Below, in pieces: positions 2,880-60,499 of a stretch of DNA of 64,000 nucleotides. The DNA is from Roseburia hominis A2-183 (GTDB taxonomy: Bacteria; Bacillota; Clostridia; Lachnospirales; Lachnospiraceae), in the NCBI RefSeq assembly GCF_000225345.1, contig NC_015977.1, positions 3,348,001 through 3,412,000 of the forward strand, in the 5' to 3' direction. Position numbers and translations under genes: made by a program. How positions within the stretch are numbered: position 1 is the first letter of the stretch; each line of letters starts with the position of its first letter. Below the pieces are notes generated by a model that saw nothing but the letters and a program-made list of their open reading frames with translations, had not been told where the DNA came from and made no database searches.

Positions 2880-3476
2880 AAAGACCCCGCCGCAATAAGC
2901 ATATTGTGCTTTGCGTTGATAAGTAATATTATAAGAAACACACTCGGGGATTTCAGCTGGAATGCAGATGGAAATTGGGTTCAAAAAATGTGGCATTTCT
3001 AACCAGCCGGATGTTTGCATCTTCGATGATCCGTGTCTTTCCAAGTTTGGAGCACTCCGCGGGTCATGTCCGCATCCCGGAAGACAATTTGTAGGACTTT
3101 TGTGTGTGTCCCTTATGGCACCTCTGAACAAAACATAACCGCGCGAAGCCGATGTCTGAGTTGCCATCTGCCATATTTTTAATAGCAGATGGCAACGAGT
3201 TTCGGTTCGCGCGGTTTTATATTGTCTGTGAAGAGGCGCCATTAGGGACACCAGAAAGTCCGCCCATTGTCTCCGGTGTGTCGGACATGCACCCGTCGGA
3301 TTGTCCAAACGTGGAAGAGACACGGAATCCGATGCAAACATTCAGCTGGAAGAAATGCTGACATTTTTCTCCAACAAATTTCCATCTGCATTTCCATCTG
3401 AAATCTCACGAAGTGATCTTCTGATAATATTACTTATCATCCCAAAGAGGTCTATGCTTATTGTGGCAGTTCCTTT
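2880..3476 (+). repeat. Giant imperfect palindromic element, copy A
   Basis: The whole interval between murG and the HIT gene is one inverted repeat. The left arm (2880-3171) and the reverse complement of the right arm (3185-3476) align nearly base for base, with GATAAGTAATATTAT at 2918-2932 mirrored at 3424-3438. The apex is a 12-bp perfect stem (3160-3171 with 3185-3196) around a 13-nt loop. Next to it are GC-rich flanks (CCGCGCGAA) and blocks reading ACATAACCGCGCGAAG on one arm and TTCGCGCGGTTTTATA on the other. No conserved reading frame spans it. Copies B (inverted) and C lie elsewhere in the window. It resembles an outsized MITE or a giant hairpin RNA; no known family recognised. Confidence 0.88.
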
Positions 3477-3512
3477 GAATGATCGTTTCTAATCCAAAGC
3501 CATGCTCCGTTT

Positions 3513-3932
3513 CTAGTTCCGGCTCAGAGAATCTCTGATCTGTGCCATCTCCTCATCCGAGAAGTTCTCATGGCTCCACATCAGAATGTCGTTATTCTCC
3601 GCGTTCTGATAGCGTGGAATCAGATGCATATGGAAGTGGAATACTGTCTGTCCTGCAACTTCGTGATTATTCTGAAGAATATTAAATCCATCACAGCCAA
3701 GAACCTCTGTCATATGTCCTGCAAGCTTCTTGGCAAGCTTCATGGCTTTTCCTGCAACTTCCTCATCGATATCATAGATATCCGCATAGTGCTTCTTCGG
3801 AAGAATCAGCGCGTGTCCTTTTGACGCCGGGCTTGCATCGAGAATCACCTTAAATGTGTCATCCTCATAGATCGTGTTGGACGGAATCTCTCCCGCAATA
3901 ATCTTACAAAAAATACAGTCTGCTTGTCTCAT
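3513..3932 (-). CDS. HIT family nucleotide hydrolase (HinT-like)
   Basis: The 139-residue product carries the histidine-triad signature HFHMHLIPR (residues about 98-106) and an N-terminal CIFCKI zinc-binding pair. The family hydrolyses nucleoside phosphoramidates, adenylyl conjugates or dinucleoside polyphosphates; the central His forms a nucleotidyl intermediate. Cytosolic, no signal peptide. The ATG at 3932 has an AAGGAG site 8-12 nt upstream. It converges with murG across palindromic copy A, the element ending 37 bp beyond its stop. Substrate within the HIT superfamily cannot be decided from sequence. Confidence 0.92.
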   Translation of the reverse strand: MRQADCIFCKIIAGEIPSNTIYEDDTFKVILDASPASKGHALILPKKHYADIYDIDEEVAGKAMKLAKKLAGHMTEVLGCDGFNILQNNHEVAGQTVFHFHMHLIPRYQNAENNDILMWSHENFSDEEMAQIRDSLSRN

Positions 3933-3994
3933 AATATGATTACTCCTTTCTTACACCTGTCGAATTTTGTAAACTGGTTGTTATTGAACTTCTT

Positions 3995-4705
3995 TTGTAT
4001 AAATGCTACACTAAGTTGTGTCACGTGTTAAATCAGATCAACAAGGCAGGGATTACATTGTTAAGCAACGAGGATTACCTTCATATTTTCCACGAAATAA
4101 AAAATTCTATTACGTTGATAAACAGCTCCCTTCAGCTCGTTGAAAAGAAACACCCTGAAGTGCGGGAATTTGACTACTGGAGTGAATCCATGTCGGAACT
4201 CTGTTTTCTGAAAAACATGGTCATTCAGCTGTCCTCTGCGCGGCTGTGCAATCAACTGAATCTGATGCAGGTAAGCATTTATTCGTTTATGCATCAGATC
4301 GACACTTCCATCCGTGTACTATCCTGGAAGAACTTTGTCTGTAACTTCCAGCTTGAAGAGAACCTTCCCCTGATCGAACTGGATCCGCAGCTTTTAAAAC
4401 AAGCTGTCATAAATATTATCAAAAATGCATTTGAAGCCATGCATGAGAGTGGCACTACCGATGTCCACGTCTTTTATGAAGAACCCTTTATGAGCATTGC
4501 CATCACTGACCACGGCGGCGGACTCGACCCGGCTCTGGCGGATACCATCTTCCAGCCTTTTATTACCTCCAAAACGGGAGGCAGCGGTCTGGGACTTGTC
4601 ATTACCCGTCAGATCATCGAATCACACCACGGTACATTAACCTGCGATTCCAGACCGGGTGACGGATGCACCTTCACCATCGCACTTCCTCTTACGCAAA
4701 ATTGA
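3995..4705 (+). CDS. Soluble histidine-kinase-like ATPase without a sensor domain
   Basis: The 236-residue product has a phospho-acceptor-like H-box (FHEIKNSI, His about 33) and a complete GHKL ATPase domain: N box NIIKNAFEAM, G1 box DHGGGLD, F box FQPFITSK and G2 box GGSGLGLVI. There is no membrane segment and only about 30 residues before the H-box, so any signal must come from a partner protein. No response regulator is adjacent. The start is uncertain: the frame opens with TTG at 3995 without a good ribosome site, while TTG at 4058 has AGGCAGGGA 6 nt upstream and would give 215 residues. Its last 14 bp overlap the end of the convergent 4692-5684 gene. Confidence 0.8.
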   Translation: MYKCYTKLCHVLNQINKAGITLLSNEDYLHIFHEIKNSITLINSSLQLVEKKHPEVREFDYWSESMSELCFLKNMVIQLSSARLCNQLNLMQVSIYSFMHQIDTSIRVLSWKNFVCNFQLEENLPLIELDPQLLKQAVINIIKNAFEAMHESGTTDVHVFYEEPFMSIAITDHGGGLDPALADTIFQPFITSKTGGSGLGLVITRQIIESHHGTLTCDSRPGDGCTFTIALPLTQN

Positions 4706-5684
4706 ACACGGTATCCAGCATCCGCAGAATCTTAAAATTGCCCTTCGCAGTCATCTCGCCTGTCATAAAGGCTCTCTGGAATGTCATCCTCCCGGCAATC
4801 ACGCCATCCATTACTTCCGGCGTCAGTTTTGCATAGATATCAATATTCTCTTCCTGACCATATTGTATCGTGAGATCCTCATCTTTCACTTCAATAAAAA
4901 GCGGCTTTTTCTTATCTGCAAACATAAACAGATATCTGGCATGAAAATCCTGCTGCGGAACAAACGCATTGCGCAGCTGATCGATATAGGCTACATCCTC
5001 TTCCTGGCTGACCTTTCCAAGCATATCCTTGAACATGGATGCCAGTTCCTGAATATCTTCCTTCTGCTTCTTCACATAGCTGTCATCCGATACATACTTG
5101 GACAGCTGCTCACTTTCCTGTGGAGTGAGTTCCATCTGCGGTGTGCGCAGCACACTCTGTCTGACCGCGAGGTTACTGTTCGGGAGACTTTTCATCTTCT
5201 GAGAAATCGTCCGGTAGAGATTCTCCGCCTTCTTCTCAATGATGACCGTGTAGTCCTTGTTCATCTCAAACGACACCAGATCCTCCACATATCCGCAGAG
5301 TCCCGGACACGGAAGCCCGCCGAGAATCTCCCAGGCATTTGCCAGCGTCATCTCACCCTCACGCTCCCCGTAGGTCGTAGACATCACGATCGGCTGCATA
5401 TAGGTCGTCTGAATCTTCTCCTTATCGCCGTACAGCCAGCATGCATCGAGAAACTGCTGCATGTAGCCGCCGATTCCGAGCCACTCGATCGTGGTCGCAA
5501 GAATAATACCGTCCGCCTCTTTCATCGTCTGCGGCAGGGTCGCTATTTCATTCTTGTGCTCATAGATATTGATCCGATCGACCGTCACACGCAGTTCGCG
5601 CAGCACTTCTTCCATCTTATTCAAAACATAAAGTGTCGGATCGTCCAACAGTCCCCGTCCACCGTAATAAATATTTACTTTCAT
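4692..5684 (-). CDS. Flavodoxin-like fold protein with C-terminal SCP2 domain
   Basis: The 330-residue product starts with an NAD(P)H-dependent FMN-reductase/flavodoxin-type beta strand (MKVNIYYGGRG) and has a DGIILATTIEWLGIGGYMQQFLD segment typical of that fold. Residues about 225-330 look like an SCP2 sterol-carrier-type lipid-binding domain (GKVSQEED at its start, FIEVKDEDLTIQYG, VMDGVIAGRMTFQRAFMTGEMTAKGNF). SCP2 modules bind acyl chains in a hydrophobic tunnel. Flavin binding and the substrate are inferred, not shown. It converges with the soluble kinase gene with a 14-bp overlap of coding ends and no terminator between them. A 361-codon open frame on the opposite strand here is a shadow of this gene. 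Confidence 0.75.
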   Translation of the reverse strand: MKVNIYYGGRGLLDDPTLYVLNKMEEVLRELRVTVDRINIYEHKNEIATLPQTMKEADGIILATTIEWLGIGGYMQQFLDACWLYGDKEKIQTTYMQPIVMSTTYGEREGEMTLANAWEILGGLPCPGLCGYVEDLVSFEMNKDYTVIIEKKAENLYRTISQKMKSLPNSNLAVRQSVLRTPQMELTPQESEQLSKYVSDDSYVKKQKEDIQELASMFKDMLGKVSQEEDVAYIDQLRNAFVPQQDFHARYLFMFADKKKPLFIEVKDEDLTIQYGQEENIDIYAKLTPEVMDGVIAGRMTFQRAFMTGEMTAKGNFKILRMLDTVFNFA

Positions 5685-5760
5685 TCAAAGCCTCCGTTTT
5701 GTCCCATCTGTCGCTTTATGGAACATACTGCTTTCAGTATATAAATTTTTGCTCACAAAA

Positions 5761-6945
5761 TCAATATTTTTGACGGTTTCTGTGATATAAAATGACTGTC
5801 GCGGCAAATCCGGCAAGCAGACCTCCGATGTGTCCCCAGTTATCAATTCCCGCCGAGGAAAACCCGTAATAGATGGTAAGCACAATCATCATCATAATTC
5901 CCCGGGTTGTAATCTGCTCAAATCTGCCCCGGTGCAGTATCACGATCCACAGGAATCCGCCAATCACTCCGAAAATAGCACCCGAAGCTCCTGCCGACAC
6001 TGCATAATCGCCGGTGCGAAGCATCATCCCGTAGGAGAGCAGTCCCGCCCCGATCAGGGAAACCAGATAAATCAAAAAATACTTCAGATGCCCTGTGACA
6101 CGCTCCAGTCTTGATCCCATACAGTATAAAATCACCATATTATTCACCAGATGTACCGCGCCGAAATGAAGGAAGCCAGCACTTATGATCCTCCACCATT
6201 CATGGTTGATCCGGATAAAATCCGGGTACATCGCGCCGTGCTCCGCCATAAAAAATCCGTTCGTCGTATCTCCGAGCCATTCAAGCACAAGATATGTTAT
6301 AACATTGACAGTAACGAGAGCGATGGTCACATATTCCGCCCGGATGTTCTTCCACAAAATGCCCAACCGGTTCTTTGCCGTATTCTGTGCAGATGCATAT
6401 GCGGTACCTGTGTCCTGCCACGACGTCTCTGCCCAGCCACATGCTCCGGCACCCTGCCGCGACGTCTCTGCCCAGCCACCGGCTCCGGTACCCTGCCGCG
6501 ACGTCTCTCCCGCGCCGCCTGTTCCGGCACCCTGCTCTAATGCCCCCCGGAGTCCGAAAAAGTCTCCCGGCTGGTTCTCATAAATCAGCAGCCGTCCGCT
6601 TTGGGGCTGATATACCCACACATTCCTGCACTCTGCGCACAACTTTCGTTCCACCTCGGAATCTCCGCCGATCAGAAGTGTCAGCATCTCCACATGATAT
6701 ACCGGAAATCCATCCGGGAAATCCCCAAGTCTCCCCTGCGGGTGATAGAACAGATCCATGGCGTGTTCTTCCATGCTCCGGTACTGCTGCACAGAGAACC
6801 GGTTTCCGCCGGAGAGATCTACCGCCATTACAATATGGAACCCCTCCTGATAATACTTATAATAAATTCCGGCTTCCGCCAGATTGGTGTGACAATAGCG
6901 GTAGCCTTCTCCTCTTAATACATTTGCGACTGCTGCATTTTCCAT
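5761..6945 (-). CDS. Rhomboid family intramembrane serine protease
   Basis: The 394-residue product has a cytosolic N-terminal region of about 200 residues and a C-terminal rhomboid core with six or seven membrane segments. The catalytic motifs are intact: HFGAVHLVNNM in TM2, the nucleophile serine in GASGAIFG, and the histidine in NWGHIGGLLAGF. Rhomboids cleave transmembrane substrates inside the membrane. A Gly/Ala/Gln/Thr linker just before the core is encoded by three 39-bp direct repeats (6414-6530). The ATG at 6945 is chosen because AGAGGTAAC precedes it; an earlier GTG at 6966 has no ribosome site. It has its own promoter (6982-7010), so it need not depend on the Tad operon upstream. 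Confidence 0.92.
   Translation of the reverse strand: MENAAVANVLRGEGYRYCHTNLAEAGIYYKYYQEGFHIVMAVDLSGGNRFSVQQYRSMEEHAMDLFYHPQGRLGDFPDGFPVYHVEMLTLLIGGDSEVERKLCAECRNVWVYQPQSGRLLIYENQPGDFFGLRGALEQGAGTGGAGETSRQGTGAGGWAETSRQGAGACGWAETSWQDTGTAYASAQNTAKNRLGILWKNIRAEYVTIALVTVNVITYLVLEWLGDTTNGFFMAEHGAMYPDFIRINHEWWRIISAGFLHFGAVHLVNNMVILYCMGSRLERVTGHLKYFLIYLVSLIGAGLLSYGMMLRTGDYAVSAGASGAIFGVIGGFLWIVILHRGRFEQITTRGIMMMIVLTIYYGFSSAGIDNWGHIGGLLAGFAATVILYHRNRQKY
6414..6530. repeat. Three 39-bp tandem repeats in the rhomboid linker
   Basis: Units at 6414-6452, 6453-6491 and 6492-6530 begin CCTGCC(A/G)CGACGTCTCT and keep the reading frame, each encoding 13 residues of the type xTSRQGxGAxGWAE. The third unit is the most diverged. 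A multiple of three suggests copy number can vary without frameshift. Confidence 0.9.
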
Positions 6946-6981
6946 ACGCGTTACCTCTGTCTGCACTCTTATAATATGGTT

Positions 6982-7010
6982 ATTATAGTTAGACCGGGCG
7001 CAGATTGCAA
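6982..7010 (-). promoter_or_regulatory. Sigma-A promoter of the rhomboid gene
   Basis: On the minus strand TTGCAA (7005-7010), a 17-nt spacer and a perfect TATAAT (6982-6987), 37 bp upstream of the chosen ATG. Confidence 0.65.
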
Positions 7011-7031
7011 ACGTACTTCCCTCATTTTTTC

Positions 7032-8267
7032 TTAAATAAATCTAAACTTTTCATCTGCAAACATCACGACCTCATTTTTCTGCAGACTCATTCCTGTTTT
7101 ATAATTCAGCAATTCTCCACCCACTCTGGTGCCGTTCGACGAATTGAGATCCTCTATAAAAAAGACAGCTCCCTTTTTGCTGATCTTTGCATGCCTCCTG
7201 CTCACGGTCGCACTCGGAATCCGGCCATCACACTCCGCTGTACTCCCGATTACATAGTTGTCTTTCTCTATCACCAGATCCGAGTATCCGCCGGTTCCTT
7301 CGTAGCGCAGGATTCCTTCCGGTTTCTGCGAAATTCCCGCCAAAAGCACCGTGGGATTTGCGGATTTATGTTCCTCTTCCTCCGGTTCAAAGACAAACGC
7401 CTCCGGCTCCTTCTGCATATTTTTCATATTCCCGCCGATCTTCCATCTGCCCGTTCTTCTTTTGTCCCCGGATGCTGCCGCTTCGTCCGCCGGTCTGCCT
7501 GCCTTTTCACCTGCCGGTCTGCCTGCAGCTGTGCCTGTCGTTTTCCATATTTTCTCCCACACTGCCGCAAGCAGTTCCTGCACCGTGCTCTCTCCGCGAA
7601 AAATCTGCTTCCATATGGAAGCATCCCGCTTCCCGTCCTGTTCCTTCTGTCCGACAGTGGCATATGCTTTCGGCTCTTCCGGTTCTGTGTCATCCAGACC
7701 CTCCGGCTCTGTCTTCGCTTCATCCTTTTCATACGGCATTAAAAGCAGCGATTTCAGCTCCTTTAACTCCATTCCCCCTGCACTGCTCTGTCCGTAAATA
7801 TCATATGCCGCTTTGACCGCACGCTCATCCGAATGATCCAGTCGTGTCAGCAGATATTCCATGAACGTCCGGAAGGCTTCCGGCAGCGGCATTGGATTCC
7901 CCGGATAGTAGCAGAAAGAAATCTGTCTGGTCCGGTAATCTACGAAAATACTTTCCGCCGACAACAGAATACTCTGTGCCGGCAGCAGCATTCCCTCTAA
8001 CTGCTGCACTGCCTCATAAATTCCGTTGAGTACATTGCACAACATATCATAGGAAAACGTCTCCGTCTCCAACACCGCATCCAGCGCCTGTTTTCCTGTA
8101 ATGTTATACCACAGATACTTTTCTCCGTTCTCCTGCACACATTCCGCAAACACAATATTCCCCTTCGGAGCATGAGCAATCATCTTTTTTTCCCATTCCT
8201 GCAATTCTTCACACTGCGCGAGCACCATGTAGCTTGCCGTCAGTTTTCTAATATACTGTATCTTCAT
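7032..8267 (-). CDS. FHA-domain protein with N-terminal DUF6382-like domain
   Basis: The 411-residue product has an N-terminal globular region (about 1-170) resembling DUF6382, a charged Pro/Glu and Ala/Gly linker, and a C-terminal FHA domain (about 325-411). The FHA core residues are present: YVIGSTAECDGRI, VSRRHAKI and SSNGTRVGG. FHA domains bind phosphothreonine peptides. Together with the Ser/Thr kinase gene at 20.7-22.0 kb this suggests a phospho-signal acting on the pilus machinery (inference). It is the last gene of the Tad operon; its ATG lies inside the preceding small gene (20-bp overlap), indicating translational coupling. No membrane segment is evident. Confidence 0.85.
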   Translation of the reverse strand: MKIQYIRKLTASYMVLAQCEELQEWEKKMIAHAPKGNIVFAECVQENGEKYLWYNITGKQALDAVLETETFSYDMLCNVLNGIYEAVQQLEGMLLPAQSILLSAESIFVDYRTRQISFCYYPGNPMPLPEAFRTFMEYLLTRLDHSDERAVKAAYDIYGQSSAGGMELKELKSLLLMPYEKDEAKTEPEGLDDTEPEEPKAYATVGQKEQDGKRDASIWKQIFRGESTVQELLAAVWEKIWKTTGTAAGRPAGEKAGRPADEAAASGDKRRTGRWKIGGNMKNMQKEPEAFVFEPEEEEHKSANPTVLLAGISQKPEGILRYEGTGGYSDLVIEKDNYVIGSTAECDGRIPSATVSRRHAKISKKGAVFFIEDLNSSNGTRVGGELLNYKTGMSLQKNEVVMFADEKFRFI

Positions 8268-8469
8268 TTTGAAATAATTCCCCCGCTTCCTGCCAGCGGT
8301 AAAACATCTTTACCGCCTCTATTTCCTGCTCCTGCCCTATCGCCAGCGCGGTGTCCCTGCACTCTGTATACATCTGAATACCGCTCTTCATGGCGAATGC
8401 AAACAACGCCAGCACGAGCGGCACCACAAGCGCCGCCTCTATGGTCAGACTTCCTCTCCATCCGTTCAT
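8248..8469 (-). CDS. Small TadE-like pseudopilin
   Basis: The 73-residue product begins with a short basic/polar leader and GSLTIEAALVVPLVLALFAFAM, the TadE-like pattern of a conserved Glu five residues into a hydrophobic helix that follows a Gly-Ser/Leu-Thr site. TadE-like proteins are minor pilins processed by the Tad prepilin peptidase. The tail of about 40 residues is acidic and ends QNEDTVY. GGAG lies 6 nt upstream of the ATG at 8469, and the 3' end overlaps the FHA gene by 20 bp. It lies 24 bp after the second prepilin peptidase gene. Confidence 0.75.
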   Translation of the reverse strand: MNGWRGSLTIEAALVVPLVLALFAFAMKSGIQMYTECRDTALAIGQEQEIEAVKMFYRWQEAGELFQNEDTVY

Positions 8470-8493
8470 AAATTCTCCATTTCGTCCCGTTTT

Positions 8494-8946
8494 CTACCGC
8501 CATCCCAGCTGAAATACATACGCCGCAAAAAGGAATGGAAGAAACGGCATCCGGTAATCCTTTCTTCTATGCTTCACAATGAGTCCAAACAACGCCGCCG
8601 GAACAATCAACATAAGCGCCGTTAAAAACAACTCCACATTCCGCCAGAATCCCAGAAAAATACCGCTTGCCATCAGCATTGCGCCATCCCCGTAGCCAAT
8701 CTCCTCCCTGCTGACCCAAGCCGCAAGCAAAAGCACCGCGCCGATTCCTGCACCCAACAGCAGATCCGTCAGCTTCTGTGTCGGGAGCATCAGGTGAAGA
8801 ACCAGTCCTGCAATTCCCGCCGCAAGAGGCACATACACGCATATCATCTGTTCCTTCCAGTCGCGGTATGCCGTGACCGCAAATATTCCAAGCAGCAACA
8901 CCTCACCCACACAATTCTGCATTGTCTTTCTTCTCCTCTCATCCAT
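8494..8946 (-). CDS. Second A24-type prepilin peptidase of the Tad locus
   Basis: The 150-residue product is a polytopic membrane protein with the two aspartates expected of type IV prepilin (A24) peptidases: YRDWKEQ after the first membrane helix, and GYGDGAML (the GxGD motif) before a later helix. These enzymes cut prepilins after Gly at the membrane. It is half the length of PilD-type enzymes, as in CpaA/TadV. The CpaA-like enzyme at 15840-16280 has the more usual GAGDIKL, so this operon carries two. The start could be ATG 8946 (GGGAG at short spacing) or ATG 8922 (AGGAG 10 nt upstream); neither changes the enzyme core. Confidence 0.78.
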   Translation of the reverse strand: MDERRRKTMQNCVGEVLLLGIFAVTAYRDWKEQMICVYVPLAAGIAGLVLHLMLPTQKLTDLLLGAGIGAVLLLAAWVSREEIGYGDGAMLMASGIFLGFWRNVELFLTALMLIVPAALFGLIVKHRRKDYRMPFLPFLFAAYVFQLGWR

Positions 8947-8956
8947 CTCTCTCCCG

Positions 8957-9826: not shown

Positions 9827-9842
9827 CGCAACACCTCCCTCC

Positions 9843-51686: not shown

Positions 51687-52293
51687 AAAGGATGGAACTG
51701 CCGCAATGAGCATATCGTGCTTTGGAGTGATAAGTAATATTATTAGAAGACCAGAGAACAAAAAAGTTCCAGAATAAACAGACGGCGGCAAATTCTTTGA
51801 AGCAAAATTCGAGTATTTCTTCCATGCCGTGGCTGGCATCCCATTCCGTGTCTTGGCCACGTTTGGACACTCACGGAGTGTGTCCGACAAGCCGCAGACA
51901 ATGAGCGGACTTTCTGGTGTCCCTAATGGCATCTCTTCACAGACAATATAAAACCGCGCGAACCGAACTCGCCGGCATCTGCTATTGAAAATAGGGCAGA
52001 TGCCGACTCAGACAGCGGCTTCGCGCGGTTATGTTTTGTTCAGAGGTGCCATAAGGGACACACACAAAAGTCCTAAAATTGTCTGCTGGCTTGCGGACAC
52101 AGTCCGTAGAGTGTTTCAAACTTGGAAAGACACGGATCATCACGGATGCCGGCTGCGGCATGGTTAGAAATACCGGATTTTGCGGTCAGAATTTGCCGCC
52201 GCATGTTTATCTGGAACTTTTAAGTATCTATTTCTCATAGTATTACTTATCACCCAAAAGAGGGCTATGCTTATTGCAACAATTCCATCCTTT
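51687..52293 (-). repeat. Giant imperfect palindromic element, copy B
   Basis: Same family as copies A and C but in the opposite orientation. It begins AAAGGATGGAACTGCC and ends in the mirrored sequence; GATAAGTAATATTAT at 51729-51743 faces its partner at 52237-52251. The apical stem is 51971-51982 with 51996-52007. The apical third of each arm (TTCGCGCGGTTATGTTTTG and its partner) matches the other copies closely, but the stalk block is different in both arms, for example GTTCCAGATAAACATGCGGC in one arm and GTTCCAGAATAAACAGACGG in the other, so complementarity is kept. It begins 58 bp after the stop of the 5'-nucleotidase gene; the segment from 51481 to 51686 holds only the Rpn leader. Confidence 0.88.
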
Positions 52294-52351: not shown

Positions 52352-53839
52352 TTACACTTCCACATAAGGATTCTCTTTGAAATATTCCAGAATGAGTTCC
52401 ACCATCTCCGTATTGATTTCACGGACAAGTTCACATTCCGTATATACTTCATATCCGCCCGCTCCGCTGTAACGGTAATTGTTAAGGCACAGCGTAAAAG
52501 AATCTGTCTCCGTTACCGTCTTTCCCTGGTAAGTCAGATTTTTAATCCTGTTTCCGACCGGTGCAGCCGGGTCAATCTCATATGCTGCCCCCATATAGTA
52601 GTCATAGTTATAGTGCTCCACCTTCGGCACAAGGAAGCTTTCCGCAACCTGCACCGTTCCATCCGTGGCGACGGCAAAATACTCCGCGCTCCGCTCCATC
52701 ACCTGCTTTAACTGTTTTCCACTGATCCTGCATACGATGAGCGTATTCGGATACGGATAGGTTGCTATAATGTCGCGGACACTCACCTCGCTGCGAAATC
52801 CGGCGATCTCATTGGCAAGACCGACCGCTGACAGCTGTGCGCCGGAAAAATGTAACTGTATCCGGTTTAAAAAATCGGCAATCGGCGAACCGTGCAGCGC
52901 CATTTCCGCTTTTTCTCCGGGAAGAAGCGCCCGGCTTAAATGCCCGATCGGCTGATCCAGCCAGCTCTGTACCCGCTCTTCCTCTGCGGCATACTTTTCG
53001 CATAATGCACCGACAGCATTTGCTCCGTCGGCGACACGCTTCTCGGAGCGGACAACAAGTCCGTCTTTTGTCCGCTCCGCTTCCAGATAGTGATACTCTT
53101 TGGCATTCTCAAGCGGCTGTACCACATAAGTTCCGTGCACATACTGCCCGTCGACGGACATATGCTGGTGCCCGGTCAGCAGAATGTCAAAATCCAGTTC
53201 CTTACAGATGCGGTATCCGACATTCTCCGTCGTCTTCTGCAGGCGCTCTCCGGTCTTTAAATCACACTCAAATCCGCCGTGGTAGATGCAAAGCGTAATG
53301 TCCACCTCTTTTTTCAGATGCAAAAGCGCCTCTTTTGCCGCCTCAAATGGGTCTGTAATGCAAATTCCCGCGAGATTTTCCTTCCGCTCCCACACATTCA
53401 CATAGTCTGTCACAATACCGACAATCCCGACCCGGAGTCCGTTTCCAAGCGTGTGGATCACATACGGATGGCATGCTCTTCCCGCCTCATCTACAACATT
53501 CTGGCAGACACACGCGCCGTGATGAGCCTCTATGTAAGCGTTCTGATAGTCCATCCCATAATTAAAATCATGGTTGCCGAGCGTATAATAATCGTAGCCG
53601 CAGTCGTTCATGATATCCACAATGGCCTGCGGCGATCCTGACTTCTGCCTGCAATAGTAGGCAAAGGCGGAGCCCTGCAATATATCTCCGCCATCAATTA
53701 CCAGTGTATTCTCATCTTTTTTGAAATCCCGGGCAAACGAGAACAGCCCCAGATCTTTTCGTTTCAAATCCCCGTAAGTCGTTGGGTAAAAATACCCGTG
53801 AACATCCGAGGTAAAATATATCTTTAACGTTTGTTCCAT
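52352..53839 (-). CDS. Cytosolic-type metallophosphatase / 5'-nucleotidase
   Basis: The 495-residue product has a metallophosphatase domain (FTSDVHGYF, VIDGGDILQGS, TLGNHDFNYG, IYHGGFE, LTGHQHMSV) and a 5'-nucleotidase C-terminal domain (about 330-480; NEIAGFRSE and YRYSGAGGYEVY). No signal peptide or membrane helix, unlike the 48322-50304 enzyme, so it likely works in the cytosol or is released. The start is ATG 53839, with GAGGGATAAG; the frame is open to 53962. It closes the phosphonate-type transporter operon, which suggests the imported compound is a phosphorylated nucleoside or similar (inference). Confidence 0.9.
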   Translation of the reverse strand: MEQTLKIYFTSDVHGYFYPTTYGDLKRKDLGLFSFARDFKKDENTLVIDGGDILQGSAFAYYCRQKSGSPQAIVDIMNDCGYDYYTLGNHDFNYGMDYQNAYIEAHHGACVCQNVVDEAGRACHPYVIHTLGNGLRVGIVGIVTDYVNVWERKENLAGICITDPFEAAKEALLHLKKEVDITLCIYHGGFECDLKTGERLQKTTENVGYRICKELDFDILLTGHQHMSVDGQYVHGTYVVQPLENAKEYHYLEAERTKDGLVVRSEKRVADGANAVGALCEKYAAEEERVQSWLDQPIGHLSRALLPGEKAEMALHGSPIADFLNRIQLHFSGAQLSAVGLANEIAGFRSEVSVRDIIATYPYPNTLIVCRISGKQLKQVMERSAEYFAVATDGTVQVAESFLVPKVEHYNYDYYMGAAYEIDPAAPVGNRIKNLTYQGKTVTETDSFTLCLNNYRYSGAGGYEVYTECELVREINTEMVELILEYFKENPYVEV

Positions 53840-53862
53840 CTTATCCCTCAGTCGTATTATAG

Positions 53863-54672
53863 TTATCCCCGCGTCAGCTTCACACGGATCTTTGTGGAGA
53901 TTACTTCCACAATCAGAATCAGCACGATCAGTCCTGCAAGGATTGCACCCACCTGATTCCATTTGTACGCGCTCATTGCAAAAATAAGCGGCGCACCAAT
54001 ACCGCCGGCACCTACCAGACCAAGCACAGTCGCATCACGAAGATTCATGTCAAAACGATAGATTAACGTTGACATAAAGTCCGGGAATAACTGTGACAGA
54101 ATGCCATAACGGATCTTCTGGAACATCGTGCATCCCGCTGCATCAAGCGATTCCAGTATCTTGGTGTCAAGGTCTTCGATACTCTCAATAAACATCTTGC
54201 TGATCATACCGATCGAGCACAGGGACATCGTCAGAAGTCCCGCAAATGGTCCCGGTCCCGTCACACGGATGAACATCAGTCCATATACAAATGCCGGTAT
54301 TGTGCGGATCGCCATAATAAACACACGGAAAATCAGTGCAATCGGCTTCGGAACAAGGTTGGCTGCAGCCAGAAAAGACAGCGGGATCGAGAGCACTGCT
54401 CCCACAATCGTACCCAGAAATGCGATACACATTGTCTCCAACAGCAGATACGCCACGCCGGAGGTTGTAAAATTAAATAAGAGCGCTGTGTCCGGATGAA
54501 AAATGCCGCTGATAATCTTTCCCGCTACCGTAAGCCCATCGCCGCCTGTTGTTCCGCTTTGCACCGTGGACATCGACCATGCCAGAAGTGCTGCAACGAT
54601 GAGTGCCACAAGAATCTTCGCATACCACGTCTTCGGCTTCTGCTCATACATTTTATCTATTTCTTTTTTCAT
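53863..54672 (-). CDS. phnE: Phosphonate-type ABC transporter permease (second PhnE)
   Basis: The 269-residue product has six membrane segments and the PhnE permease loop motif FRVFIMAIRTIPAFVYGLMF...GAGGIGAPLIF, which contacts the PhnC ATPase. It forms a heteromeric channel with the adjacent permease. GGAGG precedes the ATG at 54672, 16 bp after the first permease gene. The transported compound could be phosphonate, phosphite or a nucleotide-like ester. Confidence 0.9.
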   Translation of the reverse strand: MKKEIDKMYEQKPKTWYAKILVALIVAALLAWSMSTVQSGTTGGDGLTVAGKIISGIFHPDTALLFNFTTSGVAYLLLETMCIAFLGTIVGAVLSIPLSFLAAANLVPKPIALIFRVFIMAIRTIPAFVYGLMFIRVTGPGPFAGLLTMSLCSIGMISKMFIESIEDLDTKILESLDAAGCTMFQKIRYGILSQLFPDFMSTLIYRFDMNLRDATVLGLVGAGGIGAPLIFAMSAYKWNQVGAILAGLIVLILIVEVISTKIRVKLTRG

Positions 54673-54688
54673 TCTGCCTTGTCCCCTC

Positions 54689-55510
54689 CTAGGTAAGCTT
54701 CTTACGAATATAATGGCTGAGTGCCTCGATCACGAGCACCGTTCCGAATAATACCACGAGGATCATGCCCACGCTGTCGTACTCTCTCCAACCGATCTTC
54801 TCGTTTAAGATCAGACCGAGTCCTCCGGCACCTACATATCCCAGGATTGCCGCATAGCGGACATTTCCCTCAAAACAGAACAGGCAGACGGAAAGATATG
54901 CCGGAAGCACCTGCGGCTGGATCGCTGCCAGAAATGCCTGTGCCCTGCCAGCTCCCATCGCTTCCATCGCTTCGTAAGCTCCCATGTCAACCGTCTCAAT
55001 CAGCTCGTAAAGCTGCTTGCCGACATAAGCAAATGTAAAGACGGCAATTGCCACAGTTCCTGCCATTGTTCCAAGTCCCCAGATATAAGTCGCAATCAGT
55101 GCTGCCACCAGGGTCGGAATCGTACGCACGATACTTAAGAAGATACGCACCACGCCCAGAACGACCTTATTTTTGACCAGATTGCTGGATGCCAGGATGG
55201 CAAATGGAATTGCCAGAACCCCACCGATGAAGGAGCCGAGCAGCGACATCTTGATCGTATCTAAAAGCGGTCCCCAGATACTGCTTAAATATCCCGTCTT
55301 TGGCGGAAACATCTGTCCTAATATGACAAAAAACTGATTTCCGCGTGTGAGAATCGTATTGAGCGAAAAACCGGTAATCCGGACGGAAATGACGGTCGCA
55401 ATCAGAAGCAGAAGAAGTACAAGCGGTGTGCGCGTGCGTTTTTCCTCCACTACTTTTCCGTCGGATAACACCAGTTTCTTCGGCTTGAAAATTTTATCAT
55501 ATATTCCCAT
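54689..55510 (-). CDS. phnE: Phosphonate-type ABC transporter permease (first PhnE)
   Basis: The 273-residue product has six membrane segments and the PhnE signature VRIFLSIVRTIPTLVAALIAT...GAGGLGLILN. Its ATG shares one base with the phnC stop codon (TGATG), so it is translationally coupled. Paired with the second permease downstream. Confidence 0.92.
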   Translation of the reverse strand: MGIYDKIFKPKKLVLSDGKVVEEKRTRTPLVLLLLLIATVISVRITGFSLNTILTRGNQFFVILGQMFPPKTGYLSSIWGPLLDTIKMSLLGSFIGGVLAIPFAILASSNLVKNKVVLGVVRIFLSIVRTIPTLVAALIATYIWGLGTMAGTVAIAVFTFAYVGKQLYELIETVDMGAYEAMEAMGAGRAQAFLAAIQPQVLPAYLSVCLFCFEGNVRYAAILGYVGAGGLGLILNEKIGWREYDSVGMILVVLFGTVLVIEALSHYIRKKLT

Positions 55511-56271
55511 CAGGCTTCCTCCACCTCATCCGGTATCTTTCCGGCATAGATCATGTTTAACACATCCTCTGTCACATCCGCGGAAGGTCCGTCATAGACG
55601 ATCTTTCCGGCGCGGATACCGATGATCCGGTCCGCATAGGCAAGCGCCAGTTCTACGTGGTGGATATTGATCAAAATGGTAATGTTCATTTCCTGATTGA
55701 TCTTCTTAAAATCGCTCATTACCTGCTTTGCTGTTACCGGATCGAGCGCCGCTACCGGCTCATCCGCGAGGATGATTTTCGGATTCTGTGCAAGTGTGCG
55801 GGCGAGCGCCACGCGCTGCTGCTGTCCGCCTGAAAGCTGGTCCGCACGGATATATGCCTTATCTAAAATGCCCACTTTGTCGAGTGCCTCCAAAGCGTTC
55901 AACTTGTCTTCTTTTTTAAATATACCGAGTAATACACGCCAGAACGGCATCTCAGGCACTTTTGCCATCAATACGTTGCGGATGACCGTGGTGCGTGTCA
56001 CAAGATTAAAGGATTGAAAAATCATTCCGATATTGCGGCGGAATTTCCGCAGTTGTTTTCCTTTGAGGTTCTTAACCTCCTGTCCGTCCACTGTAAGCGT
56101 ACCGGAAGTAATGTCATGCATACGGTTGATCGTGCGAAGCAGTGTCGATTTTCCTGCTCCCGAAAGACCGATGATTCCCACAAACTCGCCCTGCTCAATC
56201 GTAAGATTGACATCGTCGAGTCCAACCACGCCGTTGGGATATACCTTGGATACGTTTGAAAACTCTATCAT
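55510..56271 (-). CDS. phnC: Phosphonate-type ABC transporter ATPase (PhnC)
   Basis: The 253-residue ATPase has Walker [10 protein letters not shown] (residues about 34-42), Q-loop IFQSFNLV, signature [17 protein letters not shown], Walker [13 protein letters not shown] and the H-loop His in INIHHVELA. It powers uptake. The start is ATG 56271, with GGAAGGAG; the frame is open 5 codons upstream without support. It lies 105 bp after phnD across a terminator-like hairpin. Confidence 0.95.
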
Positions 56272-56293
56272 AAATGCTCCTTCCACATTGCCT

Positions 56294-56345
56294 TAAAAAA
56301 TGTGCAGCACAGCGGAGTGATGTCTCTTTCCAAGATCACTCCGCT
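56294..56345 (-). terminator. Attenuator-type hairpin between phnD and phnC
   Basis: AGCGGAGTGAT (56311-56321) pairs with ATCACTCCGCT (56335-56345), extended by an outer GTGCAG/CTGCAC pairing, with TTTTTT after it on the minus strand. Such a hairpin downstream of the binding-protein gene usually lets the binding protein be made in excess over the membrane parts. Confidence 0.8.
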
Positions 56346-56376
56346 GACACTGCACCCTTTGTCTGCCCGTTTCTGA

Positions 56377-57489
56377 TTAGTTGGCTGCGTTCAGTTCCTG
56401 AATCAGCTTCTGTGCTTCTCTTTCCTTATCATAGTCAGAAGACTGTGCCGGCTCATATCCGTTGTGGCTGTAGATTGCGATAACCGCCTTGCCCTCTTCG
56501 GTATTGCCGATGTTGATCAGTGCTGTCTGAATGGCTGTCTTTAAGTTCTCATCCATGTACGGAGAGGTCTTGCTCACACAGACGGTATCGTTGTAGATCG
56601 GATCTGTCACACCGATGACGTTCGTCTCCTCCCAGATGGAAGCAGAGCGTCCATACTCGCTGGTCCAGTTTTCCTCGTAGTCACGTCTTGCGTCTGCGTA
56701 GGTTACCAATACATCTACCTGTCCGGATGCAAGTCTTGCGAATGCACTTGCATAGGAATCAGACTGTACTGCATTGGAAAGATCTGTGATGCCCTTGCCG
56801 TAACGATCCTGCATCCATAATGCCGGGTAAATGTAGCCTGCCGGTGAAGAAGAAGACATCACGCTCCAGTTTGCGCTATCCAGATCATCCCAGGTAAGCT
56901 CCTCTCCGGAATTTACCTTGTCTGCAAGCTCCTGTCCTTTCTCAGAAGGACCTGCGATGAACAGAGCACGGTAAGATACTGCCTGCTTGTCAGATGCCTC
57001 TGTCGGCTGTCCGTCATTCCAGTCCGCCGGATTGTCGGAGTCCTTGTTCAGACCATCTCTGGTTGCGGTCAGGATCACATCACATCCGTCATCATAGAGC
57101 ACGTAAGTACCGCCCGGAATAAATCCAACATCCGCTGTTCCGGCGGAAAGTGCCTCGCCTACTGCCTCGTATGTCGTACCTACGGAAATGTTTACACTGT
57201 CTACATCATAGCCCAGTCCCGCAAGCTCGTTCTTTAACAGATCACTCAACGGCTCTGTTGCAGTTACGATCTCTTCCGGATCTCTGGACGGTACAAAATA
57301 TACGTTTAACGCATCCAGATGCACATTCTCAGCGGAAGCTGTCTGGCTCTCCGTAGTAGCAGCTGCTGTCTCGCCTGCTGCTGCACCTGCATTGCTGTTA
57401 TCTGTTGTCTCTTCTGTGTTACTTCCACAGCCTGCAAATGTACCCATGCACATTGCTGCTGCCAGTAAAGTAGCTGTCAATCTCTTCAT
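56377..57489 (-). CDS. phnD: Phosphate/phosphonate-type solute-binding lipoprotein (PhnD-like)
   Basis: The 370-residue product has a lipoprotein signal peptide (LTATLLAAAMCMGTFAGC, lipobox AGC), an Asn/Thr/Ala linker, and a PhnD-like fold: LNVYFVPSRDPEEIVTATEPL, VNISVGTTYEAVGEALSAGTADVGFIPGGTY, and SSSPAGYIYPALWMQD. It captures the substrate outside the cell and delivers it to PhnE. The start is ATG 57489, with AGAGGAG; the open frame goes to 57522. It lies 37 bp after the LacI regulator stop, so it is co-transcribed with it. Confidence 0.92.
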   Translation of the reverse strand: MKRLTATLLAAAMCMGTFAGCGSNTEETTDNSNAGAAAGETAAATTESQTASAENVHLDALNVYFVPSRDPEEIVTATEPLSDLLKNELAGLGYDVDSVNISVGTTYEAVGEALSAGTADVGFIPGGTYVLYDDGCDVILTATRDGLNKDSDNPADWNDGQPTEASDKQAVSYRALFIAGPSEKGQELADKVNSGEELTWDDLDSANWSVMSSSSPAGYIYPALWMQDRYGKGITDLSNAVQSDSYASAFARLASGQVDVLVTYADARRDYEENWTSEYGRSASIWEETNVIGVTDPIYNDTVCVSKTSPYMDENLKTAIQTALINIGNTEEGKAVIAIYSHNGYEPAQSSDYDKEREAQKLIQELNAAN

Positions 57490-57526
57490 AATTGCAAATT
57501 TCTCCTCTCTGCAGTGAAACAATTAT

Positions 57527-58501
57527 TCATGCACTGTCGCCCAGTTCCAATTTTGTCGGCAGGTAAACCTTCATACTGTCCACGCGCTTGTCGATGATTC
57601 GTTCCAGCAAAAGCTTGATTGCTGTTGACCATACAATATCCGGCAGCATCCGAAGACTGGTATATGTCGGATATTTCGTCTGCAGCGTCTCAATATCACG
57701 GTAAATGACAACCGCAACATCCTTCGGAATCCGGTATTTTAATTCTTTTACCGCTTCCAGGGCGCCTTCTGCCACCTCATCATTTCCAAGCACCAGAACT
57801 TCCGGTACATCATCTGTCTCCAGAAGTTCTCTGGTCAGACGGTAGCCGCTCTCTCTGCTGATTTCACCCACACAGAAATAGTGCTCCTTATAGCACCCTC
57901 TCTGCGCAAGGATCTCCGTCAGTCCCATTAAGCGGTGGGTACCGATCCGTACACCATCCTTCTCATAGATACCGCCGATATAACCGATACTCCGGTATTC
58001 CTTGACATCCAGAAGATAGTGTACCATATCCTTTAAGCCCTGCTCATAGTCCATGATAATCTGGTCAAACTCATAATCTTTCTGATCCGAATTGACAAAC
58101 AGGATCGCATCACTCTGTTTTCGCAGAAAATTTATCTCTTCCTCCGAAAAAGATCCAAATGCGAGAATCCCGTCGACATCTGCATCTTCCCTGCAGGTGA
58201 TCCGCAAAAAGCTGACGTCCACCTTCTGCGGCATCGTCGCTGCGATATGGTCCAGCGATGCCAGTCGTATGTCGTGCCTGTCCCCTCTTACCAGATGCCA
58301 GTCTGCCACACCGATCGTAACATGGGTCTTATTCTGCGCATGACGCATCTTAGGCGGAATATAGTTTAATTCGTGGGCAATCTTTAAAATCTGGCTCCTG
58401 ACTTCTGCTGTGACGTTCAATGTCTCATCCTGATTCAGTACCCTCGATACAGTCGCCGGTGATACCTTTGCTAACTCTGCAATTTCTTTGATTGTTGCCA
58501 T
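57527..58501 (-). CDS. LacI-family transcriptional regulator
   Basis: The 324-residue product has the N-terminal LacI HTH (MATIKEIAELAKVSPATVSRVLNQDETLNV) and hinge helix region, and a periplasmic-binding-type ligand domain (QIIMDYEQGLKDMVHYLLD, SIGYIGGIYEKDGV, VLVLGNDEVAEGAL). It probably represses its own operon with the PhnD/C/E transporter. The start is ATG 58501, with AAAGGCG upstream; 11 open codons precede. A perfect promoter and an adjacent palindrome are at 58523-58574. LacI control of a phosphonate-type transporter is unusual; such operons are normally PhoB-controlled. Confidence 0.93.
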   Translation of the reverse strand: MATIKEIAELAKVSPATVSRVLNQDETLNVTAEVRSQILKIAHELNYIPPKMRHAQNKTHVTIGVADWHLVRGDRHDIRLASLDHIAATMPQKVDVSFLRITCREDADVDGILAFGSFSEEEINFLRKQSDAILFVNSDQKDYEFDQIIMDYEQGLKDMVHYLLDVKEYRSIGYIGGIYEKDGVRIGTHRLMGLTEILAQRGCYKEHYFCVGEISRESGYRLTRELLETDDVPEVLVLGNDEVAEGALEAVKELKYRIPKDVAVVIYRDIETLQTKYPTYTSLRMLPDIVWSTAIKLLLERIIDKRVDSMKVYLPTKLELGDSA

Positions 58502-58522
58502 ATAATCACGCCTTTCTTCTGC

Positions 58523-58551
58523 ATTATATTTCACGTTTTTTTTAATTTCAA
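58523..58551 (-). promoter_or_regulatory. Sigma-A promoter of the lacI-phn operon
   Basis: TTGAAA (58546-58551), a 17-nt spacer and a perfect TATAAT (58523-58528) on the minus strand, 21 bp before the regulator ATG. Confidence 0.75.
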
Positions 58552-58556
58552 TAGCG

Positions 58557-58574
58557 TTAGTAAACTTTTACTAA
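58557..58574. promoter_or_regulatory. Putative LacI-family operator
   Basis: TTAGTAAA-CT-TTTACTAA, a perfect 8-2-8 inverted repeat 5 bp upstream of the -35 of the lacI-phn promoter; a further half-site TTTTACTAG lies at 58580-58588. Layout fits binding of the LacI-type dimer encoded immediately downstream. Confidence 0.5.
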
Positions 58575-58635
58575 ATTTTTACTAGATTTTACATAACCTA
58601 TACATAAGGCTTATAAATCGGCATCTTTTCGCTTA

Positions 58636-58673
58636 TAAAAAAACCGGAAATGCCATTTTCTGACATCTCCGGT
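58636..58673 (-). terminator. Intrinsic terminator of alr
   Basis: ACCGGA...TCCGGT (58643-58673) with a partly paired inner part, followed on the minus strand by TTTTTTTATAAG; 14 bp after the alr stop. Confidence 0.8.
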
Positions 58674-58686
58674 CCGTCCGCCTCCT

Positions 58687-59856
58687 CTATCCTCTTAACA
58701 GAAGTTCCTTTTCCACAACTTTGCCATTTCTGATATAGATACGCGGCACACGTTTGCTCACCGCGCAGGTAAGCTCGTAAGGAATCGTCCCGGCAAGTGC
58801 CGCAAGATCATTGATGGAGTTCTGTTTTCCGAACACCTCGACCTCGCTTCCAACATCCACACCCATTTTTCCTGTCAGATCGATCATACACATGTCCATG
58901 CAGATCTTCCCGCGCTGCGGAGCCGGTCCCTCTTTTGTCATCAGCGCGCAGCGGTTGGAAAGACAGCGGAAAAAGCCATCGGCATAGCCGTAGGGAACCA
59001 CGCCGATCCGCGTGGTATGCTCTGTCTTAAAAATGCCGCCGTAGCTGATCGCCGTCCCTGCCGGATAGATCTTGATGGTGCTGACCGTCGTCTTTAATGT
59101 CATGACCGGCAAAAGCCCCAGCTCGTCCGCAAACTCCCCGTAGCCGTACAGAAGCAGTCCCGGGCGCACCATATCAAGAAAGGTCTCCGGATATCTTGCA
59201 ACCGCGCCGGTGTTCGCGCAGTGACGGAGCGCGAACTTTCTTCCCAGGCGCTTTTCGACTTCCTCAATCACGCGCATAAACAGGTCGAACTGATGCTCCG
59301 TGTATTTTTTGCAGTCCTCGCCAGGCTCGTCCGATACCGCGAAATGCGTAAAGATACCCTCCGCATCCAGTCCTGGCAGCGAGCAGCCGTGACAGATTCC
59401 CGCCACGCCCGTCTCAAAATGATCTCCGTCGCACAGATATCCCAGACGCGACATTCCGGTATCCACCTTGATGTGGATCTTTAAGATGCCGCCGCACTTG
59501 ACCGCCTCTTCGCTGTACTCAAGCGCTTTCGCCTCACAGCTGACCGCCTGTGTAATGTGATATTTGATCAGTCTTGATACCTGCTCCTTCGGTGTGTGTC
59601 CGAGAATTAAAATCGGCATCGTAACGTCATTTAAACGCAACTCGACCGCCTCATCAATACTGCTGACCGCCAGATAATCCGCACCAAGCTCCTGCAGCAG
59701 ATGCGATACCTGTACAGAACCGTGTCCGTAGGCATCCGCCTTCACAACCCCCAGAAACTTTACATCTGCACCGATTCTCTCTCTTAATTTATGATAATTG
59801 TGTGCCAGGGCATCCAGATCAATCTCCGCCCAGGTACGTCTCAATGTCGACTCCAT
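58687..59856 (-). CDS. alr: Alanine racemase
   Basis: The 389-residue PLP enzyme interconverts L- and D-alanine for peptidoglycan. The N-terminal barrel has WAEIDLDALAHNYHKLRE and the PLP lysine in VVKADAYGHG (residue about 39); the C-terminal part has the catalytic tyrosine in AISYGGIFKTE. Length is typical. GGGAGG lies upstream of the ATG at 59856, and its promoter (59900-59928) sits just outside palindromic copy C. Confidence 0.96.
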   Translation of the reverse strand: MESTLRRTWAEIDLDALAHNYHKLRERIGADVKFLGVVKADAYGHGSVQVSHLLQELGADYLAVSSIDEAVELRLNDVTMPILILGHTPKEQVSRLIKYHITQAVSCEAKALEYSEEAVKCGGILKIHIKVDTGMSRLGYLCDGDHFETGVAGICHGCSLPGLDAEGIFTHFAVSDEPGEDCKKYTEHQFDLFMRVIEEVEKRLGRKFALRHCANTGAVARYPETFLDMVRPGLLLYGYGEFADELGLLPVMTLKTTVSTIKIYPAGTAISYGGIFKTEHTTRIGVVPYGYADGFFRCLSNRCALMTKEGPAPQRGKICMDMCMIDLTGKMGVDVGSEVEVFGKQNSINDLAALAGTIPYELTCAVSKRVPRIYIRNGKVVEKELLLRG

Positions 59857-59899
59857 GCCGCACTGCCTCCCGCTTCATTTCTTCTATATTTATACGAAT

Positions 59900-59928
59900 A
59901 CTATAATCCACGCGCCACATTTATGCAA
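59900..59928 (-). promoter_or_regulatory. Sigma-A promoter of alr
   Basis: TTGCAT (59923-59928), a 17-nt spacer and TATAGT (59900-59905) on the minus strand. The -35 is 18 bp from the edge of palindromic copy C. Confidence 0.6.
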
Positions 59929-59945
59929 ACAAAAAGTTCCCTTCC

Positions 59946-60499
59946 ATGCTTTGCCTTGATAAGTAATATTATAAGAAACACACTTGGGGATTTCATGTGG
60001 AAATACAGATGGAATATTCGGTTCAAAAAATATGGCATTTCTAACCAACCGAATGGTTGCATCTTCGATGATCCGTGTCTTTCCAAGTTTGGAGCACTCC
60101 ACGGGTCATGTCCGCACTCCGGAAGACAATTTGTAGGACTTTTGTGTGTGTCCCTTATGGCACCTCTGAACAAAACATAACCGCGCGAAGCCGCTATCTG
60201 AGTCGGCATCTGCCCTATTTTCAATAGCAGATGCCGGCGAGTTCGGTTCGCGCGGTTTTATATTGTCTGTGAAGAGGTGCCATTAGGGACACCAGAAAGT
60301 CCGCCCATTGTCTCCGGTGTGTCGGACATGCACCCGTCGGATTGTCCAAACGTGGAAAAGACACGGAATCTGATGCAACCATTCGATCGGAAGAAATGCT
60401 CACATTTTTCTCCAACGAATATTCCATCTGCATTTCCATCTGAAATCCACACGGTGTGTTTCTTATAATATTACTTATCCCCAAAAGAGATCTATGCTT
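59946..60499 (+). repeat. Giant imperfect palindromic element, copy C
   Basis: Same orientation as copy A and about 90% identical to it in the left arm by eye. GATAAGTAATATTAT at 59958-59972 mirrors 60465-60479. The apical stem changes GCCATCTGC/GCAGATGGC of copy A to GGCATCTGC/GCAGATGCC with pairing kept. The outer part is shorter than in A and B: homology starts at TGCTTTGC on the left and ends at CTATGCTT on the right. The right end overlaps the stop codon and last residues of the 60492-61061 gene, which reads ...GAAGCATAG, the element's own terminal sequence. No coding potential is conserved between copies. Confidence 0.88.

What the first reader, a model, noticed from the sequence alone, without database searches (positions are those of the whole stretch)
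2880..60499. Three dispersed giant imperfect palindromes of about 550-610 bp
Copies A (2880-3476), B (51687-52293, inverted) and C (59946-60499) each consist of two arms of about 290 nt that are reverse complements of each other across almost the whole length, with GATAAGTAATATTAT near each end and a short apical loop. Each follows a stop codon closely (0-60 bp). The sequence shows the dyads directly. I recognise no named MITE, REP, retron or large RNA (GOLLD, ROOL, HEARO) with this layout. Hypotheses: an outsized non-autonomous mobile hairpin, or a giant hairpin RNA at 3' ends.
Basis: partly seen in the sequence, partly recalled or inferred. Interest (0 to 1): 0.82.

Follow-up and report, generated by a model that had tools for sequence, protein, structure and literature searches.

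The report
Giant mobile DNA palindromes replacing terminators
One bacterium carries about eighty copies of a 600-letter DNA palindrome that sit where genes end, apparently by jumping in and replacing the small hairpins that stop transcription, and whose two halves stay matched to each other even as the sequence changes.

Summary
A, B and C belong to a family of about 80 copies or fragments in this one 3.59-Mb genome: 75 places carry the apical motif, 7 lack it. Of 76 loci examined 70 are palindromes of at least 500 bp. blastn found none in 59 other genomes, 35 of them same-genus. They sit at gene 3' ends: 45 convergent, 22 tandem, 1 divergent, 2 undetermined.

Best reading: a non-autonomous mobile foldback element (giant MITE) that inserts by replacing terminator-like hairpins, as shown for IS1272. 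In one nested pair the inner copy takes the place of the outer copy's apical hairpin, to within a few bases. In 28 relatives the site of copy A is short, mostly a terminator hairpin. The main subfamily's ends resemble those of some IS1182-family elements of the genus, but this genome has no IS1182 match.

Arms co-vary: 85.8% pairing within copies, 74.0% across, without G-T/A-C bias (636 vs 700), unlike known RNAs. Pairing thus seems kept at DNA level; a giant RNA is disfavoured. Outer stems can differ wholly between copies yet stay complementary.

The parts
2875..3481 (+). Copy A, giant imperfect palindrome between a MurG-like gene and a HIT gene (convergent)
51687..52293 (-). Copy B, other subfamily (GTTCCAGA type), inverted, between two minus-strand genes
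59946..60499 (+). Copy C; perfect inner part 59958-60479, outer stem only partly present
2918..2932 (+). conserved inner motif GATAAGTAATATTAT, left arm of A
3424..3438 (-). conserved inner motif, right arm of A
51729..51743 (+). conserved inner motif in B, exact
52237..52251 (-). conserved inner motif in B, one mismatch
59958..59972 (+). conserved inner motif, left arm of C
60465..60479 (-). conserved inner motif, right arm of C
3139..3214 (+). apical GC-rich hairpin CCGCGCGAA...TTCGCGCGG of A (the part that is replaced in the nested copy L044)
   Evidence: positions read
51954..52028 (-). apical hairpin of B
   Evidence: positions read
60181..60255 (+). apical hairpin of C
   Evidence: positions read
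1771..2865 (+). MurG-like glycosyltransferase gene running into copy A (Pfam Glyco_transf_28, Glyco_tran_28_C)
3513..3932 (-). HIT-domain gene running into copy A from the other side
52352..53962 (-). ORF whose stop lies 59 bp from copy B
60492..61172 (-). ORF (no Pfam match) whose stop lies at the edge of copy C
58687..59856 (-). alanine racemase gene on the other side of copy C (its 5' end faces C)

Best explanation
A, B and C are copies of a high-copy, non-coding, non-autonomous mobile DNA element that is one imperfect palindrome, mostly 500-685 bp long (a giant foldback MITE). SHOWN: about 80 dispersed copies or fragments in one genome; copies differ from about 5% upward; one copy sits inside another in place of its apical hairpin, without a visible target duplication; copies lie at gene 3' ends, and at two loci that could be compared relatives have short terminator-like hairpins there; the arms co-vary within copies without G-T/A-C bias. 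INFERRED: a transposase of IS1182/IS1272 type, not found in this genome, recognised the ends (GGRRCTGYCGCA in the main subfamily) and put the element in by stem-loop replacement into A-tract/hairpin/T-tract terminators. The element's own basal stem beside the old tracts then takes over termination in both directions, so that insertion does little harm. INFERRED: the arms are kept complementary at the DNA level (foldback or cruciform), by selection on active lineages, by repair or copying between arms of the extruded hairpin, or both; conserved internal loops keep the palindrome imperfect.
For: Family size. Absence elsewhere. Nested insertion in place of the apical hairpin; the mode matches IS1272 in PMC5678879. 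Siting 45 convergent, 22 tandem, 1 divergent, 2 undetermined of 70. Copy A site in 28 relatives and L046 site in one relative. A-rich and T-rich letters outside the ends. IS1182-type ends in two elements of the genus. Co-variation and its strand symmetry: control 101.
Against: No IS1182-family match in this genome and no autonomous partner with the same ends. Only one nested event shows the replacement; base-level empty sites could not be had, the relatives being too far (about 75% DNA identity). Of the 10 IS1182-type loci looked at, only L111 and L112 have clearly similar ends. Many diverged copies have locus-specific ends rather than GGRRCTGYCGCA. Within-copy pairing is hardly above cross pairing for close copies (0.870 vs 0.864). 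The minus strand folds slightly better (7.1 +/- 1.5 kcal of about 340; 48 of 69 copies).
Confidence: 0.55

Rival explanations
1. A giant structured RNA of about 600 nt, made as mRNA 3' ends or as its own transcript, selected for RNA structure.
For: Very stable fold, 132 of 250 pairs with two or more Watson-Crick types, conserved unpaired stretches beside changing stems, position after stop codons. A slight excess of stability on the minus strand.
Against: G-T and A-C cells are equal; GU pairs are 4.2% and 4.7% on the two strands against 14.3% in the sense strand of control RNAs. No Rfam match in the window and only three chance-level matches on five copies at E up to 1. Transcription was not testable.
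Confidence: 0.12
2. The arms stay matched only because mismatches are repaired or copied between the arms of an extruded hairpin; there is no selection on the structure, and the hypervariable stems are neutral sequence under such concerted change. This concerns maintenance and is compatible with mobility.
For: Strand symmetry; 228 of 374 single changes at mismatched pairs on terminal branches restore pairing, against one third expected by chance; wholly different yet complementary stems between copies.
Against: Internal loops and single mismatches are conserved across copies, which copying of long tracts would erase; on terminal branches pair-breaking changes still dominate (669 of 1043 single changes). 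Branch states are simple parsimony.
Confidence: 0.2
3. A host element with a job of its own, such as a strong two-way terminator or a chromosome-organising site, kept by selection in this species.
For: 45 convergent against 1 divergent site; copies occupy the place of a terminator at two comparable loci; 75 places spread round the chromosome.
Against: Absent from 28 relatives at the site of copy A and from 59 other genomes by blastn; fragments and internally deleted copies occur; spacing is irregular (coefficient of variation 0.94) and orientation mixed (35 plus, 40 minus).
Confidence: 0.1

Closest known systems
IS1272 / IS1182 family (inverted-repeat-replacing transposition, PMC5678879: passages and section 22 read)
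   Same: Insertion takes the place of a hairpin, without target duplication; targets are stem-loops, some just downstream of genes. Ends of the main subfamily resemble those of two IS1182-family elements of the genus (L111, L112).
   Different: No transposase gene in the element or, by the NF033551 model, in the genome; the element is a palindrome through its whole length. The mechanism is inferred from one nested pair.
EFAR repeats of Enterococcus faecalis (recalled, Venditti et al. 2007; a search for it listed nothing)
   Same: As I recall: palindromic miniature elements that go into unrelated stem-loop sequences, leaving part of the stems at the ends.
   Different: As I recall mostly about 170 bp; no sequence comparison was made here.
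Rfam RF01731 TwoAYGGAY (PMC2864571, PMC4333381: passages read)
   Same: In two relatives the matches are the cores of palindromes at or near gene ends, with copy-specific complementary outer stems.
   Different: No sequence similarity to this family, Y-shaped apex with two hairpins, shorter; the window has no match.
REP/BIME, ERIC, YPAL and similar short palindromic repeats (recalled; listings only)
   Same: High-copy, non-coding, intergenic, able to fold back.
   Different: As recalled about 20-200 bp; here about 600 bp, with strand-symmetric co-variation and stems that change wholly but stay matched.

Membership tests
Non-autonomous mobile element (MITE, broad sense) | many dispersed copies without a coding gene | tested here: met
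   75 motif places plus 7; open frames shift between copies
Non-autonomous mobile element (MITE, broad sense) | occupied and empty sites | tested here: met
   nested copy L044 with the family as before-state; copy A site unoccupied in 28 relatives, though these are distant
Non-autonomous mobile element (MITE, broad sense) | terminal inverted repeats shared with an autonomous element in the same genome | tested here: not met
   no partner found in G000
Non-autonomous mobile element (MITE, broad sense) | target-site duplication | tested here: inconclusive
   none seen at the nested junctions or in the listed ends; IS1272-type elements have none
IS1182/IS1272-mobilised element | insertion replaces an inverted repeat | tested here: met
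   one event, L044, junctions good to a few bases
IS1182/IS1272-mobilised element | ends like an IS1182-family element | tested here: inconclusive
   2 of 10 loci looked at have similar ends; diverged copies have other ends
IS1182/IS1272-mobilised element | IS1182-family transposase in the genome | tested here: not met
   NF033551: 0 matches in G000, 28 of 62 genus genomes have one
Structured RNA (giant ncRNA) | match to a described family (GOLLD, ROOL, HEARO and others in Rfam 15) | tested here: not met
   0 matches in the window; five copies at E up to 1 give three chance-level microRNA matches
Structured RNA (giant ncRNA) | G-U favoured over A-C, one strand folding clearly better | tested here: not met
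   636 vs 700 cells; small minus-strand excess of 7.1 kcal; control
Structured RNA (giant ncRNA) | transcribed as a discrete RNA | not testable with these tools
   no expression data
TwoAYGGAY (RF01731) | match to the covariance model | tested here: not met
   none in the window nor on copies L008, L009, L044, L163, L154
EFAR-like stem-loop-targeting repeats | parts of the target stem kept at the ends | tested here: inconclusive
   A/T tracts kept beside many ends; some palindromes run on into the flanks, e.g. L012, L030, L048

The most novel reading that the evidence does not exclude
A structured DNA, not an RNA: a mobile element whose working form is a folded DNA strand or cruciform of about 600 nt with conserved internal loops and fast-changing, self-matching stems, which spreads by swapping itself for terminator hairpins and takes over their job. 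Rfam's TwoAYGGAY 'RNA', seen here in two relatives as palindromes with copy-specific outer stems, may belong to the same unrecognised class of structured mobile DNA.
Probability: 0.35. Interest if true: 0.88.

Novelty: new variant of a known kind. Interest (0 to 1): 0.7.

Why it matters
Long palindromes are generally held to be unstable in bacteria (recalled), yet this genome carries some eighty, about 45 kb by simple multiplication. They are a natural series for asking how long palindromes are tolerated, how arms stay matched, and whether an element can spread by replacing terminators with little harm. The G-T against A-C count is a simple way to ask which listed 'RNA motifs' may really be DNA structures.

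Tried and rejected
Chance as the source of arm similarity: rejected. Protein-coding reading: open frames of up to 154 codons inside copies shift in position and strand between copies. A separate small hairpin into which the core inserts: the outer stem motif lies mainly at known copies, with 7 control matches among 85 places. An autonomous element with the same inner motif: the one inward pair at long distance (2288955/2296051) encloses a beta-galactosidase gene, a transporter and two AraC regulators, no transposase. Viral, plasmid and phage collections: no match; these tools may leave out records of this genome. Two genome-contig hits are chance matches without the palindrome; no further scan of that collection was allowed. 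Flanks of copies against other fetched loci as before-state: nothing useful. DNA comparison with near relatives: flanking genes only about 70-77% identical. Uneven placing or orientation along the chromosome: no pattern seen. Literature: I recognised no paper describing this family in the listings; searches listed none; one search found the IS1272 paper.
Full report
OBSERVATION. The window has exactly three self-inverse stretches of at least 150 bp: A 2875-3481, B 51687-52293, C 59958-60479. They are far beyond chance.

COPY NUMBER. A blastn search of the same genome (G000, 3,592,125 bp, one contig; the window is 3348001-3412000) gave 82 matches on both strands although only 40 of 109 candidates were scored. 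The 15-mer GATAAGTAATATTAT has 108 places with up to 2 mismatches against 14 for the reversed control. The apical motif TTCGCGCGRTTTTATANTGTCT has 75 places with up to 3 mismatches against 0 control. Seven further places lack it: the outer copy of L044, L054, L055, L057, L062, L075 and L076. Of 76 loci with a self-inverse stretch, 70 reach 500 bp; the rest are truncated or, in L157, split. L149 keeps only the apical part and has no palindrome call; L055 (a 248-bp deletion derivative) was left out of the 76.

DISTRIBUTION. 0 of 59 other genomes, 35 of them same-genus, have a blastn match (at most 10 candidates per genome were scored). Of 396 other genomes of the family one has a two-mismatch motif hit (G442), without a palindrome. 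Plasmid, phage and viral collections gave none, genome contigs two chance hits.

SITING. With mechanically called ORFs of at least 90 aa, 45 of 70 copies lie between convergent genes, 22 between tandem genes, 1 between divergent genes, 2 undetermined; the distance from a stop codon pointing at the element to the palindrome edge has median 6 bp, and 103 of 112 are within 60 bp. Copy A lies between a MurG-like and a HIT gene. Of 30 loci fetched for the HIT gene, one is the window's own and one contig lacks the MurG gene; in the other 28 relatives the stretch between the two protein matches (12 bases added on each side) is 54-268 nt, in most of them by eye one hairpin with A- and T-rich sides; L081, at 54 nt, shows none. 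At a second locus (L046) relative G065 has such a hairpin in the same place, the only further locus that could be matched in 791 kb of relatives.

HOW IT INSERTS. L044 holds one copy inside another. The outer copy matches the consensus at 101-265 and 342-504 and lacks the apical hairpin between; the inner copy fills that place, between ...AAAATATAA and TTTTATTAAA..., with junctions good to a few bases. Sister copies give the before-state. The hairpin is gone and I see no duplication. This is the inverted-repeat-replacing mode described for IS1272 (PMC5678879; passages and section 22 read). Of 54 copies, left ends could be placed in 38 and right ends in 43: A at -2 in 31 of 38, T at +1 in 29 and at +2 in 32 of 43, as expected if the tracts of an old terminator remain. 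That the basal stem then works as terminator is inference.

WHO MOVES IT. In the main subfamily the ends are GGRRCTGYCGCA. I recalled IS1182-type ends and then looked. 28 of 62 genus genomes have a match to NF033551, 7 over the cut-off. Of ten such loci looked at, L111 has AAAGGGGCTGTTGCA and L112 AAAAGGGGCTGTCGCA at one end; L115/L138 share only AAAGGGGCTGTG; L113/L137 and L118 have other ends; for L109, L110 and L114 no ends were found. G000 has no match. The end motif has 47 places in G000 against 11 control, with no pair that suggests an autonomous element. The mobiliser is therefore a candidate only.

ARMS CO-VARY WITHOUT STRAND BIAS. 69 copies were aligned (six truncated or split copies dropped; L044, L055 and L149 not in the set). 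250 rod pairs were taken from this alignment itself. Pairing is 85.8% within a copy and 74.0% when arms of different copies are combined; the best of 2000 permutations reached 75.8%; all 69 copies exceed their own cross value; 132 pairs have at least two Watson-Crick types in at least two copies each. Misalignment of diverged copies inflates the gap; in an earlier set of 52 copies, pairs 6-8% apart give only 0.870 vs 0.864. Cells with G-T number 636, with A-C 700. Folding 69 copies on both strands gives GU 691 of 16526 and 778 of 16685 pairs; the minus strand is more stable by 7.1 +/- 1.5 kcal of about 340, in 48 of 69 copies: a small but real excess. As control, 17 of 17 pieces of known RNAs fold better in the sense strand, GU 178 of 1241 against 102 of 1104 (the rRNA pieces overlap and some tRNAs are identical). 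Selection on one RNA strand is therefore unlikely; DNA-level pairing, arm-to-arm repair or selection on both transcripts remain.

HYPERVARIABLE BUT MATCHED STEMS. Between conserved short stretches (for example GTTCCAGA and TTCTGATCGCAAAAT with their partners) the stems differ wholly between copies yet match within each copy. In 68 copies, pairs with 85-90% core identity have outer arms from 0.568 upward (mean 0.716) where shuffled sequence gives 0.573, while within-copy outer complementarity averages 0.785 and random cross 0.674. On terminal branches 228 of 374 single changes at mismatched pairs restore pairing, more than the one third expected; yet 669 of 1043 single changes break a pair (parsimony).

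A SIMILAR CLASS NEARBY. Samples of relatives (G020 391 kb, G065 200 kb, G016 200 kb) were scanned. G020 has only one of 129 bp. G065 has a 995-bp composite and two of 192 and 243 bp; G016 has 277, 249, 310 and 130 bp ones; the 192, 243 and 310 bp ones are AT-rich stretches with 60-63% identity. The 995, 277 and 249 bp ones match Rfam RF01731 TwoAYGGAY (4 matches) and have copy-specific complementary outer stems. No other RF01731 match was found in the rest of G016 (7 loci), in 7 of the other 9 G065 loci, or in 7 of 20 G020 loci. They are not similar to the present family. [quoted passage not shown]

VERDICT. The finding is real and larger than reported. Most likely it is a giant foldback MITE spread by replacing terminator hairpins, with pairing kept at DNA level. 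The kind (mobile palindromic repeat) is known; size, strand-symmetric co-variation and matched hypervariable stems make it a new variant. My own estimates: family and palindromes 0.99, mobility 0.85, hairpin replacement 0.65, DNA-level pairing 0.65.

Noticed in passing
L209 13900-14176, L210 9087-9335 (genome G016), L201 8524-9518 (genome G065): Rfam TwoAYGGAY matches are the cores of 249-277 bp palindromes (and of a 995-bp composite) whose outer stems differ from copy to copy but are complementary.
   Followed up: partly
L075 2918-10099 (genome 2288.9-2296.1 kb): The two ends of one copy enclose 7 kb with a GH2 beta-galactosidase, an MFS sugar transporter and two AraC regulators; the middle of the palindrome is missing.
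   Followed up: partly
L157 1200-1564 and L072 about 1330-1556: One copy is split just right of its apex by an IS110-type element with a 406-aa transposase.
   Followed up: partly
L054, L055, L057: Internally deleted copies; in L057 the apex is lost between GTCTG repeats, as in slippage across a hairpin.
   Followed up: no
L014, L017, L018, L050, L051, L053, L056, L062, L063, L065 (apex region): A subset of copies has about 30 extra bases in the left arm near the apex that form a small hairpin of their own.
   Followed up: no
L013, L023, L071: Related genes (66-70% DNA identity) each have a copy of the palindrome at the same 3' end.
   Followed up: no
L111, L112 (same-genus genomes): IS1182-family elements whose ends are themselves terminator-like hairpins between A- and T-tracts, most clearly in L112.
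   Followed up: partly
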